From NCBI GenBank assembly GCA_000688775.2, contig CP007628.2, forward strand, positions 124,001 through 188,000: a stretch of 64,000 nt of DNA, given 5' to 3'. Source of the DNA: Streptococcus sp. VT 162 (GTDB lineage Bacteria; Bacillota; Bacilli; Lactobacillales; Streptococcaceae). Below the pieces are notes generated by a model that saw only the letters and a list, made by a program, of their open reading frames with translations, did not search any database and was not told the origin of the DNA. Made by a program: the position numbers and the translations under genes. Below are positions 10,340-19,431 of the stretch, piece by piece (within the stretch, counting starts at the first letter, position 1; each line of letters starts with the position of its first letter).

Positions 10340-10417
10340 CGCAAACGTTTGAATTCTGATAAAAATTGGGCAAAATCAATAAAAAAACTTGAAAAAATCT
10401 AAGGTAAGGGTTATGAT
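10340..10417 (+). promoter_or_regulatory. Promoter of pgi with a cre-like palindrome
   Basis: TTGAAA (10389-10394) and TATGAT (10412-10417) are 17 bases apart. About 40 bases upstream lies the palindrome CAAACGTTTG (10342-10351), which only weakly matches the CcpA cre consensus. The promoter call is fair, the cre call weak. Confidence 0.55.
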
Positions 10418-10445: not shown

Positions 10446-11795
10446 ATGTCACATATTAAATTTGATTATTCAAAAGTATTAGATAAATTTGTTGCACCAC
10501 ATGAACTAGATTATATGCAGCCTCAAGTGACTGCAGCAGATTCTGCTCTGAGAAATGGTACAGGTCCTGGGGCAGAAATGACTGGCTGGTTGAACTTACC
10601 TGAAGAATATGACAAAGATGAATTTGCTCGTATTCAAAAGGCTGCTGCTAAAATCCAATCTGATAGTGAGGTATTGATCGTAATCGGTATTGGTGGTTCC
10701 TATTTAGGAGCTCGTGCAGCTATTGATTTCTTGAATAATTCATTTGTAAACTTGCAAAGAAAGGAAGAACGCAAGGCACCTCAGATCCTCTATGCTGGAA
10801 ACTCTATCTCTTCAAGCTATTTGGCTGATTTGGTAGACTATGTATCAGACAAAGATTTCTCAGTAAACGTGATTTCTAAATCAGGTACAACAACTGAACC
10901 GGCTATTGCTTTCCGTGTCTTCAAAGAACTCTTGGTTAAGAAGTACGGTCAAGAAGAAGCTAACCAACGTATCTACGCAACTACAGACCGCGCTAAAGGT
11001 GCAGTTAAAGTTGAAGCAGATGCTAATGGCTGGGATACTTTTGTAGTGCCTGATAGTGTAGGTGGTCGTTTTACAGTATTGACAGCAGTGGGGCTCTTGC
11101 CAATCGCAGCTGCAGGAGCTGATATCAGCAAGTTAATGGAAGGAGCAAATGCTGCTCGCAAGGCTTATGCTTCTGATAAGTTGGCTGAAAATGAAGCATA
11201 TCAATATGCAGTTGTACGCAATATCTTGTACCGTAAAGGTTATCTGACAGAAGTTCTAGCTAACTATGAACCATCTCTGCAATACTTCTCTGAGTGGTGG
11301 AAGCAACTGGCTGGTGAGTCAGAAGGGAAAGACCAAAAAGGGATTTATCCAACTTCAGCTAACTTCTCAACAGACTTGCACTCTCTGGGACAATTTATCC
11401 AGGAAGGTACCCGTATCCTCTTTGAAACAGTTATCCGTGTAGATAAACCTCGCAAAAATGTGCTGATTCCTGAATTGGCAGAAGACTTGGACGGTCTTGG
11501 CTACTTGCAAGGAAAAGATGTTGACTTTGTCAATAAAAAAGCTACAGATGGAGTGCTGTTAGCACACACTGATGGTGGAGTTCCAAATATGTTTGTGACA
11601 CTGCCTGAGCAAGATGAGTTCACTTTGGGCTACACTATTTACTTCTTTGAGTTGGCTATTGCTCTTTCTGGCTACCTGAATGGTATCAATCCATTTGACC
11701 AGCCTGGAGTTGAAGCTTATAAGAAAAACATGTTTGCTCTTCTTGGGAAACCAGGCTTTGAAGAGCTGGGTGCTGAGTTGAATGCACGCCTTTGA
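10446..11795 (+). CDS. pgi: Glucose-6-phosphate isomerase
   Basis: 449 residues, full length. It interconverts glucose-6-P and fructose-6-P. Family signatures are visible: [11 protein letters not shown] near residue 80, [16 protein letters not shown] near residue 140, and the C-terminal signature region around [14 protein letters not shown] chose ATG 10446, preceded by GGAGGAA, over an upstream TTG. The last ~158 codons are duplicated in divergent form at 17367-17843, on the far side of the sorbitol operon. This copy is therefore probably the incoming or hybrid one. A hairpin terminator follows. Confidence 0.95.
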
Positions 11796-11832
11796 TTCTC
11801 ATATGCTTTGAGTTCATTTAGAATATAAAAAG

Positions 11833-11862
11833 ATCCACAAGTTCATTTCTTGTGGATTTTTA
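11833..11862 (+). terminator. Terminator of pgi
   Basis: ATCCACAAG and CTTGTGGAT form a 9-bp stem with a 7-nt loop, followed by TTTTT. It isolates pgi from the sorbitol operon. Confidence 0.9.
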
Positions 11863-11928
11863 GTACAAGCCTCTTAATTAGTTTATTATTTTTTTTAAAA
11901 GTGTAAAAAAGAGTGTCTTAATTCTTTT

Positions 11929-11946
11929 ATGAAAGCGCTGTATAAT
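11929..11946 (+). promoter_or_regulatory. Sorbitol operon promoter -10 overlapped by a cre-like site
   Basis: TGAAAGCGCTGTAT (11930-11943) matches the CcpA cre consensus in all but the last two fixed positions. It overlaps a perfect TATAAT (11941-11946). No good -35 lies 17 bases upstream, as expected for a promoter needing an activator (SrlR/SrlM). Carbon catabolite repression of sorbitol genes is the likely meaning; not proven here. Confidence 0.6.
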
Positions 11947-11978
11947 TGCCTTGTAAATAAAATTTGAGAGGTATCAAA

Positions 11979-12779
11979 ATGAATGATTGGTTAAACATAA
12001 AAGGCAAAACAGTTCTTGTGACTGGCGCGTCATCTGGGATCGGTAAGGCAATCGTTGAAGAATTGCTGGAATTAGGAGTCAATGTAGCGAATTTTGATCT
12101 TAGCGACAACGATTTGCGTCACCCGAATCTATTATTTGTAAAAGTTGATGTAACTTCTCGCTCTGAAGTAGAAGAGGGTGTTGCCAAAATAGTTGAAAGA
12201 TTTGGCAATATTGATGCAGTGGTCAATAATGCAGGGATTAATATCCCTAGATTATTAATCGATGCAGAAAATCCTAAAGGTCCTTACGAATTGGACGATG
12301 AGACGTTCGAAAAAGTAACGATGATTAATCAAAAAGGTTTGTATCTGGTTAGTCAGGCAGTGGGACGTATTTTAGTGAAAAATGGAAAAGGTGTAATTGT
12401 GAACATGGCTTCAGAAGCAGGCTTGGAAGGTTCTGAAGGACAAAGTGCCTATGCTGCCACAAAAGCAGCAGTCTATAGTTACACTCGTTCATGGGCAAAA
12501 GAGCTGGGTAAGCATGGTGTACGTGTGGTTGGAATTGCTCCAGGAATTATGGAAGCTACGGGACTTCGAACTCTTTCTTATGAGGAAGCTCTTGCTTATA
12601 CCCGTGGAAAGACGGTAGAAGATATTCGAGCTGGTTATGCTTCAACTTCAACAACTCCTTTGGGACGAAGTGGTAAACTACGGGAAGTAGCTGACCTTGT
12701 AGCATTCTATATTTCAGACCGTTCTAGCTATATAACTGGAGTCACTACAAATATTGCCGGAGGGAAAACTCGCGGTTAA
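11979..12779 (+). CDS. srlD: Sorbitol-6-phosphate 2-dehydrogenase (SDR family)
   Basis: 266 residues. It oxidises the sorbitol-6-phosphate made by the PTS to fructose-6-phosphate. The SDR cofactor motif TGASSGIGKAI is near residue 13, the NNAG motif near residue 84, and the catalytic YAATK near residue 155. The assignment to sorbitol rests on its place at the head of a glucitol PTS operon. I chose ATG 11979 with GAGAGG ahead, not the in-frame TTG at 11964. The product feeds directly into the reaction catalysed by the neighbouring pgi. Confidence 0.88.
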   Translation: MNDWLNIKGKTVLVTGASSGIGKAIVEELLELGVNVANFDLSDNDLRHPNLLFVKVDVTSRSEVEEGVAKIVERFGNIDAVVNNAGINIPRLLIDAENPKGPYELDDETFEKVTMINQKGLYLVSQAVGRILVKNGKGVIVNMASEAGLEGSEGQSAYAATKAAVYSYTRSWAKELGKHGVRVVGIAPGIMEATGLRTLSYEEALAYTRGKTVEDIRAGYASTSTTPLGRSGKLREVADLVAFYISDRSSYITGVTTNIAGGKTRG

Positions 12780-12802
12780 AAAAATGAAGGTGAGGAAGAG
12801 AG

Positions 12803-14668
12803 TTGACCATAGTAAATCGATGGTATAATATTTTAGAAAAAATGGTCTCACAGCCAACTTATTCCTTGGTAGATATGCGCTCAGAGCTGGATATTAGTAT
12901 GCAAACCTTGCAAAAGAGTATCCAACAATTAAATGATGTTTTGGCTCCGAGTATCCAGATTATCTCACAAGATGATCAGTTAATGTTAGAGGTGTATGAC
13001 TATACTGAGTTGGAAAGGATTTTATCTGGTAGTTTAAAACGGGAGAGTGACTTCAATTCTTCCAGTAAAAGAATTGCCTATTTACTAAAACGTTTAATTG
13101 AGTCAACCTCCCCTCTTCTTATTGACGACTTGGCTGAGGAAGCAGGTGTTAGTAGAAGTACCCTTAATAAGGATTTAAAACAAGTAAAATCTTTGGCAGA
13201 GAGTTACTCTATCACTATTTCAGGAAAGCCCAACCGTGGGCTGGAGGTCTTGGGGTCCGAGCTGAATTTGCGCTTGCTCTATATTCACCAAGTGGCCCCT
13301 TACTTTGAAGGAAAGACACTCACCGAGGCAACATCTTCTTTTCTGGAGACGCTACTCCAGGAGTATAAAATCCCGAAAGAAACAAAGGAACTCCTTCGAA
13401 AGACAATTTCAATTATGGTGGAGCGTATTCATGCATCTAGGGTGTTGAGTTGCCCTATTCCTTACTATAGGAATGATTTAACAGAGACACCTTTGGTTGA
13501 AAAATTAATCTATCATATTGAGATGACTTATAAGATTTCCCTCAGTCAGTTTGAGATAGACTTTTTGTGTTTTCCGTTTAATATCCGTTTTATTGACACT
13601 TTAAGCAAGCCGTCTTATCAATCTGAACAGCTTGCAAACATTTTTCAAGGGATTGTCAAGAAAGTCAAAGAAACAATGTTGGTTAACTTTGATGATGAAG
13701 AATTATTTGAAGAAATCAAGTCTCATCTAGGCTCCTTAATCAATCGACTGATTTTCCATGTGCAAGCTAATGATATATTCCATGGCGAGGTTCAAACTCA
13801 ATATCCTTTTGCTTTTGAAATGGCGAAAATTGCTGGAGAAGAACTATCTGCAATTTTTGGTTCTGAATTGGAATTATCTGAAATCGGATATCTGGCTTTG
13901 TATTTTGAAATGATTTTAAGAAAGCAAAACTCTGTTGTAAATGGTTCTCGCAAGCAGATAGCTGTAGTTTGCACAACAGGAAGAGGAACTGCTGCGATGA
14001 TTATTCAGCAACTCAGACGAATTCTTGGAAATGATGTAGACATTACTCAGTATTCTGAAGAGGATTTTAATCTGGATTTGAATCAGGACTATTTCGCGAT
14101 TTTTACGACAGTTCCTCTAAAATATAAAGATTCTAAATCTCCAGTCATTCAAGTTAATCATCTTTTTGATGATCAATGGCTGCAGGAAGAATGGCAGAGG
14201 GCCAATGCTTTTCATCAAAAAAATCTAGAAACAGTCAGCTTACGTTTTCTTCGTTTGACTCCCCAAAAAACCTATCAGCAATACTTGCTAAATATGGTTG
14301 CAGAGTTAGAGAAACTTCAGATGATTGATGAAGGTTTTAGAAATCGGATAATTGATAGGGATAAAAAACAATCAACCATTTTTGGTGGAGGAATTGCCTT
14401 CCCCCATACAATTAACCAGGGTTATGCAAAGACTATTTTAATGTTTGGAAAGCTAGAAGAGCCTTATCAAAAAGGAGATGATTGGATTGAATTTATCTTT
14501 CTAGTCGCCATTCCCTCAGAAATTGAAAGCAAAATGGAGAGTGAATTGCTGGAATTGTATGACGACATTTTTCGAATTGCAGGAGAGCCTTCTCTAAAAG
14601 AAGCATTGAGGGCTGTAGAAACAGAGACAGAGTTTCTATCATTTTCTAAGAGCAAAGGAGTATTTTAA
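12803..14668 (+). CDS. srlR: PRD-containing activator/antiterminator of the sorbitol operon
   Basis: 621 residues, starting with TTG at 12803 behind GAGGAAGAG. The order is: N-terminal helix-turn-helix domains (residues 1-170), two PTS regulation domains (about 180-390, with conserved histidines such as in ERIHASR and LIFHVQAN), an EIIB-like domain (CTTGRGTAAMIIQQL near 392), and a C-terminal EIIA-like domain (GGGIAFPHT near 530). This is the MtlR/LicR/GutR architecture, where phosphorylation by the PTS controls activity. The stop overlaps the ATG of srlM by one base. Confidence 0.85.
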   Translation: MTIVNRWYNILEKMVSQPTYSLVDMRSELDISMQTLQKSIQQLNDVLAPSIQIISQDDQLMLEVYDYTELERILSGSLKRESDFNSSSKRIAYLLKRLIESTSPLLIDDLAEEAGVSRSTLNKDLKQVKSLAESYSITISGKPNRGLEVLGSELNLRLLYIHQVAPYFEGKTLTEATSSFLETLLQEYKIPKETKELLRKTISIMVERIHASRVLSCPIPYYRNDLTETPLVEKLIYHIEMTYKISLSQFEIDFLCFPFNIRFIDTLSKPSYQSEQLANIFQGIVKKVKETMLVNFDDEELFEEIKSHLGSLINRLIFHVQANDIFHGEVQTQYPFAFEMAKIAGEELSAIFGSELELSEIGYLALYFEMILRKQNSVVNGSRKQIAVVCTTGRGTAAMIIQQLRRILGNDVDITQYSEEDFNLDLNQDYFAIFTTVPLKYKDSKSPVIQVNHLFDDQWLQEEWQRANAFHQKNLETVSLRFLRLTPQKTYQQYLLNMVAELEKLQMIDEGFRNRIIDRDKKQSTIFGGGIAFPHTINQGYAKTILMFGKLEEPYQKGDDWIEFIFLVAIPSEIESKMESELLELYDDIFRIAGEPSLKEALRAVETETEFLSFSKSKGVF

Positions 14669-15165
14669 TGAATTCGCTAATAATTTTCGCTGTATTTGTC
14701 ATGGCAGCTTATATATTTCAAATGTTCCTCGGCTGGCAGCAACTCAAAGACTTCAATAAGACCTATACGATGCTCCGAAAACTGGGGCGCGTAGCGATTG
14801 GCAGGAAGTCCGGAAGAATCAAATCCGGTACGATTGTCATGTTCGCGGTTGATGAAAACGGTCGGGTTCTTAAAGCTAGCAAAATGCAAGGAGTCACAAT
14901 CTTAGCACGTTTTCAAAATATGGACGATTATGTTGGAGAAGACATCCATTATTTTGACAAGTATAATCCTCTTGTGAGAAAAGAAAATAAGTTGATGCAA
15001 TCAGCCATAGAAGATGCTAGAAAAGTCTATCTTTGGAATGAGGCAGGTATTGAGAAAGAGACAAGTTCATCTGATTCTTTTCTGGGATTCGGCTTTTATG
15101 CGAATTACTTACAATTATCTATTAAACAGTTATTTAAAAAAAATAAGAAAGGGAGTTCCTTATGA
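14668..15165 (+). CDS. srlM: GutM/SrlM-type glucitol operon activator
   Basis: 165 residues. An N-terminal membrane-type helix (LIIFAVFVMAAYIFQMFLG) is followed by a soluble part with GRKSGRIKSGTIVMFAVDENG, typical of the GutM family. GutM proteins act as auxiliary activators of glucitol operons. Its start overlaps the stop of srlR (TAATG) and its stop overlaps the start of srlA (TTATGA), so the three are translationally coupled. Confidence 0.82.
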   Translation: MNSLIIFAVFVMAAYIFQMFLGWQQLKDFNKTYTMLRKLGRVAIGRKSGRIKSGTIVMFAVDENGRVLKASKMQGVTILARFQNMDDYVGEDIHYFDKYNPLVRKENKLMQSAIEDARKVYLWNEAGIEKETSSSDSFLGFGFYANYLQLSIKQLFKKNKKGSSL

Positions 15166-15707
15166 ATCACATTACAAATTTTGCAGAGAGTTTTATGAAA
15201 CTCTTCCAATTAGGTGGAGAAACCTTTATTAGCTGGATGACAAATATTGTACCGCTTGTCTTAATGCTATTGATTGCAATGAATACCCTTATCGCTTTCT
15301 TGGGAGAAGAGAAGGTCAATTCCCTGGCTAAGATTTCTGCCAAAAATCCTGTTAGCCGGTATATGATTTTACCTTTCATTTCTGCCTTTATGCTGGGGAA
15401 TCCGATGGCAATCAGTATGGGACGTTTCTTACCAGAATATTATAAACCTAGTTTTGTAGCAGCTCAGATGCAGTTCTGCCATACTTCAAATGGTGTATTT
15501 CCACATATCAATCCTGGGGAATTATTTGTATGGATGGGAATTGCGACAGGAATTCAAACTTTAGGTTTAAGTCAAATGGACTTAGCCATTCGTTACATGC
15601 TTGTTGGGCTTGTCATGAACTTTGTAGGTGGTTGGGTAACCGATTTTACAACTGCTTATGTAGCAAAACAGCAAGGTGTTACCTTGAGTAAAACATTTGA
15701 TTTATAG
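15162..15707 (+). CDS. srlA: PTS glucitol/sorbitol transporter subunit IIC
   Basis: 181 residues, about four membrane helices, with the family-typical [21 protein letters not shown] region near residue 73 and the [18 protein letters not shown] segment near 108. It is one half of the membrane channel of EII-Gut, the other half being in SrlE. The gene overlaps srlM by four bases; AAGGGAG precedes the start. Confidence 0.9.
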
Positions 15708-15720
15708 AAAGAGTGAAATT

Positions 15721-16701
15721 ATGTCATATAAGAGTATAAAAGTTGTTAAAGGAAATGGCGGTTTCGGAGGACCTTTGGTCATTACACCTAGTGAAGCTAA
15801 GCATAAATTCATCTATATTACTGGTGGCGGAGAAAAGCCAGATATTGTAGATAAAATTGCTGATTTGACCGGTATGGAAGCTGTTAATGGGTTTAAAACT
15901 TCTATCCCAGATGAGGAAATTGCTTTAGCAATCGTGGATTGTGGCGGTACTCTTCGCTGTGGTATTTATCCTAAAAAGGGAATCCCTACAATAAATATTG
16001 TCGCTACAGGGAAAAGTGGGCCTCTAGCTCAATATATAACCGAGGAAATCTATGTGTCAGCAGTTGGCCTTAATCAAATTTCTGCTGCTAATGAAGACGA
16101 AAAAGCGACAACTGTGGTAACTGAAAAGCCAACTTACGATACTAGTAAAAAAATTACAGAGCAAAAAGCTGAAACAAGTATTGTAGCACGAATTGGGATG
16201 GGGGCTGGTAAGGTCGTTGCAACTTTCAACCAGGCTGCTCGTGAAGCCATCCAAACAATGCTCAATACAATAATTCCTTTCATGGCCTTTGTTTCCTTGC
16301 TGATTGGGGTTATTCAAGGATCTGGTGTTGGAAATTGGCTGGCAAAATTAATGGTTCCCCTAGCGGGGAACATCTGGGGACTCGTTTTAATTGGCTTTAT
16401 CTGTTCCTTACCATTCCTATCTCCTTTGTTAGGTCCCGGAGCTGTTATTAGTCAGATTATTGGAACTTTAATTGGAGTCGAAATCGGAAAAGGGACTATT
16501 CCGCCCCAAATGGCTCTGCCAGCTTTATTTGCTATCAACACTCAAAACGGTTGTGATTTCATTCCTGTAGCACTCGGCCTATCTGAAGCCAAGGCTGAAA
16601 CAGTTGAGGTTGGTGTCCCTTCGGTACTTTATTCACGCTTTCTCAATGGTGTTCCGCGGGTGCTAGTTGCTTGGATAGCTAGTATTGGTCTTTATCAGTA
16701 G
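15721..16701 (+). CDS. srlE: PTS glucitol/sorbitol transporter subunit IIB/IIC2
   Basis: 326 residues with the start at ATG 15721. The N-terminal EIIB domain (1-120) contains the likely phosphorylated cysteine in [14 protein letters not shown] near residue 80. A linker follows, then a membrane part (about 180-326) with [22 protein letters not shown] and a conserved [16 protein letters not shown] region. It transfers phosphate from SrlB to incoming sorbitol. There are 82 bases before srlB, with a small hairpin at 16741-16764. Confidence 0.9.
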
Positions 16702-16740
16702 ACCTTTGATAGATGCCTGAAAACAGAGAACTATTATGTT

Positions 16741-16764
16741 AAACTTATCTATAAGCCTAAGTTT
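16741..16764 (+). other. Small hairpin between srlE and srlB
   Basis: AAACTTA and TAAGTTT form a 7-bp stem with a 10-nt loop and no T-run. It could be an RNA processing or stability element; no function is shown. Confidence 0.35.
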
Positions 16765-16783
16765 ATGACAAATTAGAGAAAGT

Positions 16784-17170
16784 ATGAATAGAAATCAGAT
16801 GAAGAAAATTTTTGAAACTAAAGTAATTCAAGTAGGGTCTGAAGCTCAGAATATGATTCAAGATGCCAATATGCTCATTTTATTTGGAGAAGAAGCACCA
16901 GAAGATTTATCAGAGTATTGTTTTAAGATTGATAACAAAAATCTGCTAGGTTCAATACTAGAAGGTGGCAAGCTGGTGGTAGATAATCAGGAATATTCGA
17001 TTAGTTCCGTAGGAAATGTAGTAGAAAAAAATTTAACTGGACTGGGACATATCACGATTTCTTTTGATGGTTCAAAAGAGGGGAGCCTTCCTGGTACACT
17101 CCATGTTGTAGCAGATCAAGCGGTAGTAATTGATAAAGATTCTACCATTCAGATTTTTGAAACTGCTTAA
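16784..17170 (+). CDS. srlB: PTS glucitol/sorbitol transporter subunit IIA
   Basis: 128 residues. The EIIA-Gut fold is recognised by APEDLSEYCF near residue 40 and LTGLGHITISFDG near residue 83, which holds the likely phosphohistidine. It accepts phosphate from HPr and passes it to SrlE. The ribosome site (AGAGAAAG) is weak, and ATG 16799 is a possible alternative start. It is the last gene of the sorbitol operon. Confidence 0.87.
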   Translation: MNRNQMKKIFETKVIQVGSEAQNMIQDANMLILFGEEAPEDLSEYCFKIDNKNLLGSILEGGKLVVDNQEYSISSVGNVVEKNLTGLGHITISFDGSKEGSLPGTLHVVADQAVVIDKDSTIQIFETA

Positions 17171-17366
17171 CCATAATAAAATTTCAAATCAAGCAATTTA
17201 GAAAAATAAAAGTCTAAAAAATTGATTCAGAGCCTGGACCAAAAGTCCAGGCTTCTGGGTCTAAATTAGAAAAAATAGATGACGCAGTGGTTGATTGGCA
17301 AGTCAATCAAACTAGCCAGTCAGTGCAAGGGAATTTCCAGCAGATGCATCCACAAGGGGTGCCTGA
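17171..17366 (+). other. Junction region between srlB and the truncated pgi copy
   Basis: 196 bases of non-coding sequence. It holds a strong hairpin (17231-17253, AGCCTGGAC / GTCCAGGCT) without a T-run, and then about 110 bases that match nothing I recognise. A short open stretch (from about 17266) could be debris of another gene. An in-frame TGA (17364-17366) sits immediately before pgi homology resumes. This is where the imported sorbitol block meets the old chromosome. Confidence 0.5.
17231..17253 (+). terminator. Hairpin after srlB, possible operon end
   Basis: A perfect 9-bp stem with a CAAAA loop, but followed by TCTGGGTCT rather than a T-run. It is therefore a weak intrinsic terminator or a 3' stabilising structure. 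Confidence 0.5.
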
Positions 17367-17843
17367 ACAGAAGGGAAAGACCAAAAAGGAATCTACCCAA
17401 CTTCAGCTAATTTCTCAACTGACTTGCACTCATTGGGTCAATTTATCCAAGAAGGAACTCGTATCATGTTTGAAACAGTTGTCCGTGTTGACAAACCACG
17501 TAAGAACGTGATTATCCCTACTTTGGAAGAAGACCTTGACGGACTTGGTTACCTTCAAGGAAAAGACGTTGACTTTGTAAACAAAAAAGCGACTGACGGT
17601 GTTCTTCTTGCCCACACTGACGGTGATGTGCCAAATATGTACGTAACTCTTCCAGAGCAAGACGCTTTCACTCTTGGTTACACTATCTACTTCTTCGAAT
17701 TGGCAATTGCCCTTTCAGGTTACTTGAATGCCATTAACCCATTTGACCAACCAGGTGTTGAAGCATACAAACGCAACATGTTTGCCCTTCTTGGAAAACC
17801 AGGATTTGAAGAATTGAGCAAAGAGCTTAACGCACGTCTATAA
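17367..17843 (+). pseudogene. pgi: Truncated pgi copy (3' third only)
   Basis: The last ~158 codons of a glucose-6-phosphate isomerase, in frame to the stop, with no 5' part and a stop codon just before the homology begins. It matches codons ~292-449 of the intact pgi with about a dozen conservative amino-acid changes but many silent differences. Its codon choice (CTT, GGT, CGT, AAC, GAC) is that of a highly expressed native mitis-group gene, so it looks like the original chromosomal pgi end. It cannot make an enzyme. Its own terminator follows. Confidence 0.93.
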
Positions 17844-17850
17844 TAGAAGA

Positions 17851-17877
17851 AAAGAGTGGCTTGCCCACTCTTTTTAC
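17851..17877 (+). terminator. Original pgi terminator downstream of the truncated copy
   Basis: AAAGAGTGG and CCACTCTTT arms with a short loop, followed by TTTTT. It marks the end of the ancestral pgi transcript. Confidence 0.85.
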
Positions 17878-17970: not shown

Positions 17971-19431
17971 ATGTCAAAAGATATCCGCGTACGCTACGCA
18001 CCAAGTCCAACAGGACTACTACACATCGGAAATGCCCGTACAGCATTGTTTAACTACCTTTACGCACGCCATCATGGTGGAACTTTTATCATTCGTATCG
18101 AAGATACTGACCGTAAACGCCATGTTGAGGATGGAGAACGCTCACAGCTTGAAAATCTTCGCTGGTTGGGGATTGACTGGGATGAAAGTCCAGAAACTCA
18201 TGAAAATTACCGTCAATCAGAGCGTTTGGAACTCTATCAAAAATATATCGACCAATTGCTAGCTGAAGGAAAAGCCTACAAATCATACGTTACAGAAGAA
18301 GAGTTGGCGGCTGAGCGCGAACGCCAAGAAGCAGCTGGCGAAACACCACGTTACATCAATGAATACCTTGGTATGAGCGAAGAAGAAAAAGTAGCTTACA
18401 TCGCAGAACGTGAAGCAGCTGGTATCATCCCAACTGTTCGTTTGGCTGTCAATGAGTCTGGTATCTACAAATGGCATGATATGGTCAAAGGTGATATCGA
18501 GTTTGAAGGTGGCAACATCGGTGGCGACTGGGTTATCCAAAAGAAAGATGGTTACCCAACTTACAACTTTGCCGTTGTCATCGATGACCACGACATGCAA
18601 ATTTCCCATGTTATTCGCGGTGATGACCACATTGCCAACACCCCAAAACAGCTCATGGTCTATGAAGCGCTTGGTTGGGAAGCTCCAGAGTTCGGTCACA
18701 TGACTTTGATCATCAACTCTGAAACGGGTAAAAAATTGTCTAAACGCGATACCAATACCCTTCAATTTATCGAAGATTACCGTAAGAAAGGCTATCTTCC
18801 AGAAGCTGTATTTAACTTTATCGCTCTTCTTGGTTGGAATCCAGGTGGCGAAGATGAAATCTTCTCTCGTGAAGAACTCATTAAACTTTTCGATGAAAAC
18901 CGCCTCAGCAAGTCTCCAGCAGCCTTCGACCAGAAAAAACTTGACTGGATGAGCAACGACTACATCAAGAGAGCCGATCTAGCTACTATCTTTGAAATGG
19001 CTAAACCTTACTTAGAAGAAGCAGGGCGTTTGACTGATAAATCTGAAAAAATGGTAGAACTCTACAAACCACAAATGAAGTCAGTGGATGAAATCGTTCC
19101 ATTGACAGATCTTTTCTTCTCAGATTTCCCAGAGCTGACAGACGCTGAGCGCGAGGTCATGGCAGGAGAAACCGTTCCGGTTGTTCTGGAAGCCTTCAAA
19201 GCGAAACTAGAAGCAATGACAGATGAAGAATTTGTGACAGAAAACATCTTCCCACAAATCAAAGCAGTTCAAAAAGAAACAGGTATCAAAGGGAAAAACC
19301 TCTTCATGCCGATTCGTATTGCCGTTTCAGGTGAAATGCATGGACCAGAATTACCAGACACCATTTTCTTACTCGGACGTGAAAAGTCAATCCAGCATAT
19401 TGAAAACATGCTCAAAGAGATTTCTAAATAA
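17971..19431 (+). CDS. gltX: Glutamate-tRNA ligase
   Basis: 486 residues. It charges tRNA-Glu (and in many Gram-positives also tRNA-Gln, later amidated). The class I signature is [15 protein letters not shown] near residue 15 and the KLSKRDTNT loop near residue 255. Catalytic domain first, anticodon-binding helical domain from about 330. AGGAG precedes the ATG. The deaminase gene follows 12 bases after the stop. Confidence 0.96.

What the first reader, a model, noticed from the sequence alone, without database searches (positions are those of the whole stretch)
10446..17843. Sorbitol operon inserted at pgi, leaving an orphan 3' pgi fragment
An intact pgi (10446-11795) is followed by a complete sorbitol PTS operon, then a second pgi 3' third (17367-17843) that starts abruptly after a stop codon. 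The two ends differ by about a dozen residues and by many silent changes. The fragment has the codon style of a native, highly expressed mitis-group gene; the intact copy does not. From memory, S. mutans has the sorbitol operon directly behind pgi. The simplest reading is that a donor block 'pgi end + srl operon' was taken up by transformation and recombined through pgi, leaving the host pgi end stranded. The left breakpoint should lie within or near pgi.
Basis: partly seen in the sequence, partly recalled or inferred. Interest (0 to 1): 0.78.

Follow-up and report, generated by a model that had tools for sequence, protein, structure and literature searches.

The report
Sorbitol operon imported behind swapped pgi
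An oral Streptococcus carries a sorbitol-use operon together with a foreign copy of the glycolysis gene pgi, spliced in so that the tail of its own pgi was left behind; the same splice occurs in several related species and seems to travel between them by ordinary DNA exchange rather than by a mobile element.

Summary
The intact pgi (10446-11795) groups with srl-bearing S. cristatus and sanguinis-like genomes; the 3' piece (17368-17843) groups with native mitis-group pgi. Srl-less oralis- and infantis-type relatives have one pgi before gltX. The right join is not pgi-to-pgi homology: a gene that lies behind pgi in sanguinis-like genomes is fused to the host pgi at an 11-base microhomology (17368-17378; exact in 1 of 8 donor-type alleles seen). 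That is the signature of homology-facilitated illegitimate recombination. The join is shared by 18 of 284 Streptococcus genomes in three chromosomal backgrounds, so it was most likely made once and then spread by homologous exchange. Against an infantis-type carrier the pgi is identical (dS 0.000) while gltX has dS 0.85. Here the left crossover lies at 10382-10400; donor sequence starts at about 10493-10508. All 18 stranded tails are undamaged and look like ordinary host alleles, so they are recent or keep being refreshed. Tandem duplication is rejected. The mechanism is known; I found no account of this locus in capped searches of an open-licence library.

The parts
10370..10382 (.). last oralis-type native bases left of the block (sites 10379 and 10382)
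   Evidence: 10379 A: 20 of 21 oralis-type natives, 1 of 21 infantis-type, 0 of 11 other carriers; 10382 A: 19 of 21, 1 of 21, 0 of 11
10382..10400 (.). left crossover of this strain: oralis-type sequence changes to the sequence shared by the other oralis-/infantis-type carriers
10389..10417 (+). pgi promoter-like site (TTGAAA-17-TATGAT)
   Evidence: consensus scan only
10446..11795 (+). intact pgi; native-type for about the first 16-20 codons, foreign after that
10493..10508 (.). start of the donor-derived tract inside pgi
   Evidence: 10493: T in this genome, 41 of 42 natives and 10 of 11 carriers, A in 8 of 8 donors; 10508: G in 42 of 42 natives, A in this genome, 11 of 11 carriers and 8 of 8 donors. 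A donor-type base already stands at 10484 (also in 2 of 42 natives)
11988..12779 (+). srlD, sorbitol-6-phosphate dehydrogenase
   Evidence: NF004817, 438 bits against cutoff 304
12803..14668 (+). srlR-type PRD/EIIA transcriptional regulator
   Evidence: only sub-cutoff hits to regulator and EIIA families; name by position, recalled
14668..15165 (+). srlM / GutM-like regulator
   Evidence: NF007592 E 1.4e-21, below its cutoff
15162..15707 (+). srlA, sorbitol PTS IIC
   Evidence: NF049923 over cutoff
15721..16701 (+). srlE, sorbitol PTS IIB/IIBC
   Evidence: NF049924 over cutoff
16784..17170 (+). srlB, sorbitol PTS IIA
   Evidence: TIGR00849 E 1.1e-33, below its cutoff
17231..17299 (.). short repeat, present elsewhere in several sanguinis-like genomes and single in this genome
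17299..17300 (.). scar of a ~243-base deletion; 14 of 18 carriers lack the bases, 4 retain them
   Evidence: alignment of 5 carriers and one donor
17300..17378 (+). remnant of a gene that lies behind pgi in sanguinis-like genomes (up to the microhomology)
17368..17378 (.). 11-base microhomology CAGAAGGGAAA at the right join; the same 11 bases lie at 11320-11330 in the intact pgi
17368..17843 (+). stranded native pgi 3' end, undamaged
17849..17875 (+). terminator-like hairpin behind the fragment
   Evidence: consensus scan only
17971..19431 (+). gltX, native right flank (name not tested by a family search)

Best explanation
A DNA segment 'pgi - srl operon - start of the next gene' from a sanguinis-like Streptococcus entered a mitis-group cell by natural transformation. 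Its left end recombined at or just before pgi; its right end was joined illegitimately to the resident pgi through 11 shared bases. The donor's complete pgi replaced the resident one and the resident last third was stranded behind the operon. This happened once, most likely in a parasanguinis-like cell. A 243-base deletion followed in one branch. The finished block then moved by plain homologous recombination into infantis-like and from there into oralis-like chromosomes, including this one; the pgi side served as left arm and the stranded tail plus downstream DNA as right arm. Shown: foreign and native origins, the shared join, the deletion, the crossover positions, identity of the block across diverged backgrounds. 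Inferred: transformation as vehicle, founding host, direction of later steps, sorbitol growth as the benefit.
For: Intact pgi of the 18 carriers and 8 donors forms one clade (support 1.00); fragments group with mitis-group natives (0.97-0.99). The foreign pgi C-terminus (100% over 67 residues) and the >=87% srl block occur in the same 26 of 284 genomes. 18 of those 26 carry the fragment with the same join (14 with the deletion, 4 without). The 11-base match is exact with G047's allele. Srl-less: one pgi, gltX 1477-1478 bases after its first base in 7 of 7 oralis-type natives compared. G000 against G002: pgi dS 0.000, srl genes 0.000-0.036, gltX 0.853. Five oralis-type carriers have five different left crossovers: about -60, -200, -400, -550 and beyond -1000. 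Fragments: 0 stops in 18 of 18; 11 private-base cells over 18 fragments, 2 of them non-synonymous (one change shared by G002 and G223), against 75 cells in 78 natives left out in turn, 22 of those from G173 alone. A ComEC-family gene is present (the family also rings in E. coli). No recombinase among the nine proteins scanned around and in the block.
Against: The real donor allele is not in the sample: the nearest donor pgi (G048, G231) is 95.8% and 93.3% identical over the two parts. Only 1 of 8 donor-type alleles of the next gene (G047, itself srl-less) has the full 11-base match; the srl-bearing ones do not. In the tree the donors fall inside the carrier clade (in one search beside it), and G130, whose pgi is a hybrid, sits at its base: pgi alone does not prove a single origin, the join does. 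The different left crossovers could also be one import worn back by native DNA. Block sub-lineages differ internally (pgi dS 0.142, srlB dS up to 0.365 among carriers), so the block is itself mosaic. G030 and G215 fragments differ by 7 non-synonymous changes from the nearest of the first 18 natives; in the panel of 78 none of their bases is private. Such joining is rare by experiment (statement in PMC5361080).
Confidence: 0.87

Rival explanations
1. Tandem duplication of pgi in this lineage, followed by divergence and truncation of one copy, with srl inserted between.
For: Two pgi-derived stretches lie in direct order about 6 kb apart.
Against: The copies belong to different clades. Of 284 genomes, 21 show two pgi 3' ends: the 18 carriers, G072 (also with srl between) and G026 and G218, whose second copy is a distant paralogue of 40-41% identity.
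Confidence: 0.02
2. A site-specific island or ICE that targets pgi and restores the gene with its own copy, leaving the displaced 3' end at the far side.
For: The geometry is the same: the target gene is completed by the incoming copy and the old 3' end is displaced; the 11 bases recur at 11320-11330 and 17368-17378.
Against: No recombinase among the proteins scanned; left ends differ between carriers and do not lie at the 11 bases; in the compared srl-bearing donors native sequence resumes right behind the block without a second pgi end.
Confidence: 0.03
3. The block was inherited vertically by all 18 carriers from a common ancestor and lost elsewhere.
For: One shared join in all 18.
Against: Against three infantis-type carriers (G002, G087, G104) G000's pgi has dS 0.000, 0.007 and 0.142 while gltX has 0.853, 0.779 and 0.788. 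The join was not seen in the other 266 genomes.
Confidence: 0.01
4. The stranded pgi tail is kept because it works (a short C-terminal product, or mRNA, terminator and gltX promoter context), so selection rather than renewal explains why it has not decayed.
For: 0 stops in 18 of 18 fragments and almost no private non-synonymous change; terminator- and promoter-like sites lie just behind it (consensus scan).
Against: A TGA in frame directly precedes the join. Fragments match native alleles, one at 100% (G019 against G194), which renewal or recent stranding explains without a function.
Confidence: 0.07

Closest known systems
Homology-facilitated illegitimate recombination in transformation (S. 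pneumoniae, Prudhomme 2002; Acinetobacter, de Vries 2002; P. stutzeri, Meier 2003; seen only as references in PMC5361080 and PMC3784515)
   Same: One end anchored by homology, the other joined illegitimately, foreign DNA trapped between.
   Different: Here a past natural event with near relatives of both partners identified and the product found in several species; the cited cases are, from recall, laboratory systems.
Sequential displacement of T6SS effector genes in Vibrio cholerae (Kirchberger 2017, PMC5361080, passages read)
   Same: An incoming module displaces the resident gene, resident 3' parts remain downstream, homology-facilitated illegitimate recombination is proposed, and finished arrays are thought to move by homologous recombination.
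   Different: There the retained genes (immunity) are thought to be of advantage; here the stranded piece is the tail of a housekeeping gene made redundant by the incoming copy, and the cargo is a sugar operon.
Transformation-made merodiploids in S. pneumoniae (Johnston 2013, PMC3784515, passages read)
   Same: Transformation creates new junctions and partial duplication.
   Different: Those are tandem duplications of about 100 to 900 kb that depend on repeats; here a 6-kb foreign block and a 476-base duplicated gene end.
Interspecies recombination in pneumococci (PMC8321556; search listing with start of abstract only)
   Same: Core loci modified by interspecies homologous recombination.
   Different: That paper concerns antibiotic resistance; here a catabolic operon travels with a core gene.
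Gene-end-targeting genomic islands (recalled)
   Same: Incoming DNA restores the target gene and displaces its old 3' end.
   Different: No integrase seen, left ends vary.

Membership tests
Homology-facilitated illegitimate recombination product | one end formed by homologous recombination | tested here: met
   left transitions lie in homologous sequence at or upstream of pgi; those in oralis-type carriers belong to later transfers, not to the founding event
Homology-facilitated illegitimate recombination product | other end joins non-homologous partners at microhomology | tested here: met
   gene behind donor-type pgi fused to host pgi at 11 bases; exact in 1 of 8 donor-type alleles
Homology-facilitated illegitimate recombination product | no site-specific recombinase or transposase involved | tested here: inconclusive
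   none among nine proteins scanned; small or antisense ORFs were not scanned
Homology-facilitated illegitimate recombination product | made by uptake of free DNA by a competent cell | not testable with these tools
   a ComEC-family gene is present; the event itself is in the past
Sorbitol (srl/gut) PTS operon | S6P dehydrogenase, IIC, IIB(C) and IIA subunits, with regulators | tested here: met
   srlD, srlA, srlE over NCBIfam cutoffs; srlB and GutM-like hits below cutoff
Sorbitol (srl/gut) PTS operon | confers growth on sorbitol | not testable with these tools
   needs culture
Integrative island targeting a gene end | own integrase | tested here: not met
   none among the proteins scanned in and beside the block
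Integrative island targeting a gene end | fixed att-type direct repeats at both ends | tested here: not met
   left ends differ between carriers
Tandem gene duplication | both copies share their nearest relative | tested here: not met
   copies fall in different clades

The most novel reading that the evidence does not exclude
The block behaves as a mobile unit without mobility genes. Because it carries a complete pgi on the left and ends in an interchangeable pgi tail on the right, any mitis-group chromosome offers homology on both sides, pgi function is never lost, and each move swaps in the new host's tail, so the scar never ages. pgi would then be a recurrent, integrase-free docking site for cargo: the clean replacements in sanguinis-like and S. 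cristatus genomes and the independent pgi-srl-pgi' case in G072 are further uses of it.
Probability: 0.4. Interest if true: 0.66.

Novelty: new member of a known kind. Interest (0 to 1): 0.52.

Why it matters
Natural cases of illegitimate joining during transformation are seldom this legible (my judgement). Here the sequence shows the donor-type gene behind pgi, the 11-base join, a later deletion, crossover points in individual strains and presence in three species backgrounds. It shows how a metabolic operon can spread among competent commensals by riding on a core gene, and suggests a way to tell recently stranded or renewed gene tails from old pseudogenes.

Tried and rejected
Tandem duplication, vertical inheritance and an integrase-driven island were considered and rejected (see rivals). 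A Campbell-type single crossover of a circle was considered by reasoning only and rejected because the fragment is preceded by another gene, not by a pgi 5' part. The first trees held 9 reversed outgroup sequences (minus-strand loci I had not turned). The intact-pgi tree was rebuilt with them turned; the 3' tree was not rebuilt, so its deepest split is meaningless, while the grouping of fragments with natives lies elsewhere in it. In one search the foreign pgi stood beside S. ratti; in the corrected tree it does not, so no mutans-group origin is claimed. Pfam gave no family for the gene behind pgi in G047. The repeat at 17231-17299 was first taken for a common mitis repeat; it is single in this genome. 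G183's pgi did not pass the open-frame check in the fetched stretch; its 3' end was still used as a native row, and no row was dropped. Literature: none of the titles and abstract starts listed in searches concerned this locus. Three of those lists were capped: 20 of 49, 20 of 1,078, 15 of 195. The library holds open-licence papers only, and Prudhomme 2002 is not held.
Full report
What is there. The window is G000:C1:124001-188000 of a 2.04-Mb Streptococcus chromosome. pgi (10446-11795) is followed by srlD, an srlR-type regulator, a GutM-like gene, srlA, srlE and srlB, all open, then by a second pgi 3' end at 17368-17843 and gltX at 17971. In the frame of that piece a TGA stands at 17364-17366. 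The nearest named record for the flanks is S. oralis DD24 (91.9-95.1% for the five neighbouring stretches compared).

Two origins. I searched 127 genus genomes with the whole pgi and the 284 held genus genomes with the srl block, the join region and the pgi C-terminus (pgi C-terminus found in 283). A foreign-type pgi C-terminus (100% over 67 residues) and the >=87% srl block occur in the same 26 genomes. In the tree of intact genes the 18 carriers and 8 donors form one clade with support 1.00; inside it the donors fall among the carriers (in one search beside them), so pgi alone does not show that the carriers share one origin. The fragments fall among native mitis-group pgi (that tree contains 9 wrongly turned outgroup rows). 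G000's fragment is 98.3% identical to native G067 and 97.2% to G116, G119 and G060, but 79.4% to its own intact copy. In 7 of 7 oralis-type natives compared there is one pgi with gltX starting 1477-1478 bases after its first base.

Right join. Behind pgi in srl-less sanguinis-like genomes (G046, G047, G105, G035) and behind srl in G048, G063, G230 and G231 lies the same gene. In carriers its first part runs into the host pgi. G047 reads GAACAGAAGGGAAATATC, native pgi reads GAGTCAGAAGGGAAAGACC, this genome reads GAACAGAAGGGAAAGACC: the partners share CAGAAGGGAAA (17368-17378). Of the eight donor-type alleles only G047's has all 11 bases. All 18 carriers have the join. Four (G030, G130, G167, G215) retain about 243 further bases of donor-type sequence; 14, this genome among them, lack them at 17299/17300 (five carriers aligned). 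The longer form is the older one, because the donor-type genomes have those bases. A short repeat at 17231-17299 occurs in 7 of 9 sanguinis-like genomes searched, up to three times, once in this genome, not in five srl-less oralis- and infantis-type genomes, and in weaker form in parasanguinis-type ones; this again points to a sanguinis-like source.

Left joins. In the parasanguinis-type carriers G024 and G167 donor-type sequence reaches about 320 bases before pgi; in G030 it reaches about -380, beyond which the sequence is 99.4% identical to S. sp. F0442. G215 and G248 look the same over the 140 bases aligned. G130 begins with native pgi and is a hybrid. In infantis-type and oralis-type carriers the native start of pgi is kept and donor sequence begins between 10493 and 10508, with one donor-type base already at 10484. 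The sequence before it in the 11 carriers of these two types other than G000 shares a motif with the native infantis-type genomes G025, G118, G172 and G238. Oralis-type carriers then change back to oralis-type DNA at different distances: G000 between 10382 and 10400, G019 near -200, G084 near -400, G205 near -550, G201 beyond -1000. On the right, G201 matches infantis-type carriers over the first 180 bases of the fragment and oralis-type genomes from about 480 on. These are marks of homologous exchange; whether each is a separate import or a later wearing-back cannot be told.

Spread across species. By flanking genes the 18 carriers are oralis-type (G000, G019, G084, G201, G205), infantis-type (G002, G087, G100, G104, G223, G243, G244) and parasanguinis-type (G024, G030, G130, G167, G215, G248). 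Between G000 and infantis-type G002 the donor part of pgi has no difference (dS 0.000), srl genes have dS 0.000-0.036, gltX dS 0.853; for G087 and G104 pgi dS is 0.007 and 0.142, gltX dS 0.779 and 0.788. Sub-lineages of the block are themselves mosaic (srlB dS up to 0.365 among carriers). One step further back, the sanguinis-like srl carriers look like recipients too: against srl-less G047, G048 resumes native sequence 29 bases behind the position of the pgi stop, so there the block replaced pgi cleanly. In 26 further genomes I read srl-like matches within about 0.4 kb of pgi from the coordinates (65-78% DNA identity), and S. ratti and S. hyovaginalis have the same order. This old linkage gives incoming srl a ready homology arm.

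The tail does not age. All 18 fragments are free of stops. Against 78 native 3' ends they show 11 private-base cells in total, 2 of them non-synonymous, and these are one change shared by G002 and G223; the natives, each left out in turn, show 75, of which 22 belong to G173. Against the first, smaller panel G030 and G215 had 7 non-synonymous differences; in the larger panel none of their bases is private. A remnant drifting since the block's own divergence should carry many more changes (inference). The simplest reading is that each host's own pgi end was stranded recently or is renewed by exchange; selection on the tail is not excluded.

Mechanism and limits. The vehicle is inferred to be natural transformation: left homology, right microhomology, no recombinase among the nine proteins scanned, a ComEC-family gene in the genome (the family also rings in E. 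coli, so this is weak). The founding host is inferred to be parasanguinis-like because only that background has the undeleted form and donor DNA before pgi. Sorbitol use is inferred from gene content.

Known or new. The joining mechanism is known from S. pneumoniae, Acinetobacter and P. stutzeri (as cited in PMC5361080 and PMC3784515, passages read), and PMC5361080 proposes the same mechanism plus later homologous spread for Vibrio T6SS arrays. The listed results of seven searches (three lists capped) showed no account of this locus. It is a new and unusually legible member of a known kind.

Noticed in passing
L126 13444-13633 (G072): An independent look-alike: pgi - srl - transaldolase-like gene (named by reading, not searched) - a 190-base second pgi 3' end, 183 of 190 bases identical to that genome's own pgi; relatives G159 and G273 align up to just before it and show one pgi 3' end each.
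   Followed up: partly
window 17231-17299: Short repeat found elsewhere in several sanguinis-like genomes, single in the window's genome, so probably imported.
   Followed up: partly
L155, L156 (G218, G026): A second, distant glucose-6-phosphate isomerase gene (40-41% identical); the G218 copy contains a stop. Unrelated to the block.
   Followed up: no
L144 (G047), about 1.5-2.3 kb from the pgi start: The gene behind pgi in sanguinis-like genomes encodes a 285-residue protein with a membrane-anchor-like stretch (by eye) and no Pfam match.
   Followed up: partly
L140 (G130), pgi 5' part: pgi of this parasanguinis-type carrier is a hybrid: native start, foreign 3' part, with a crossover inside the gene.
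   Followed up: partly
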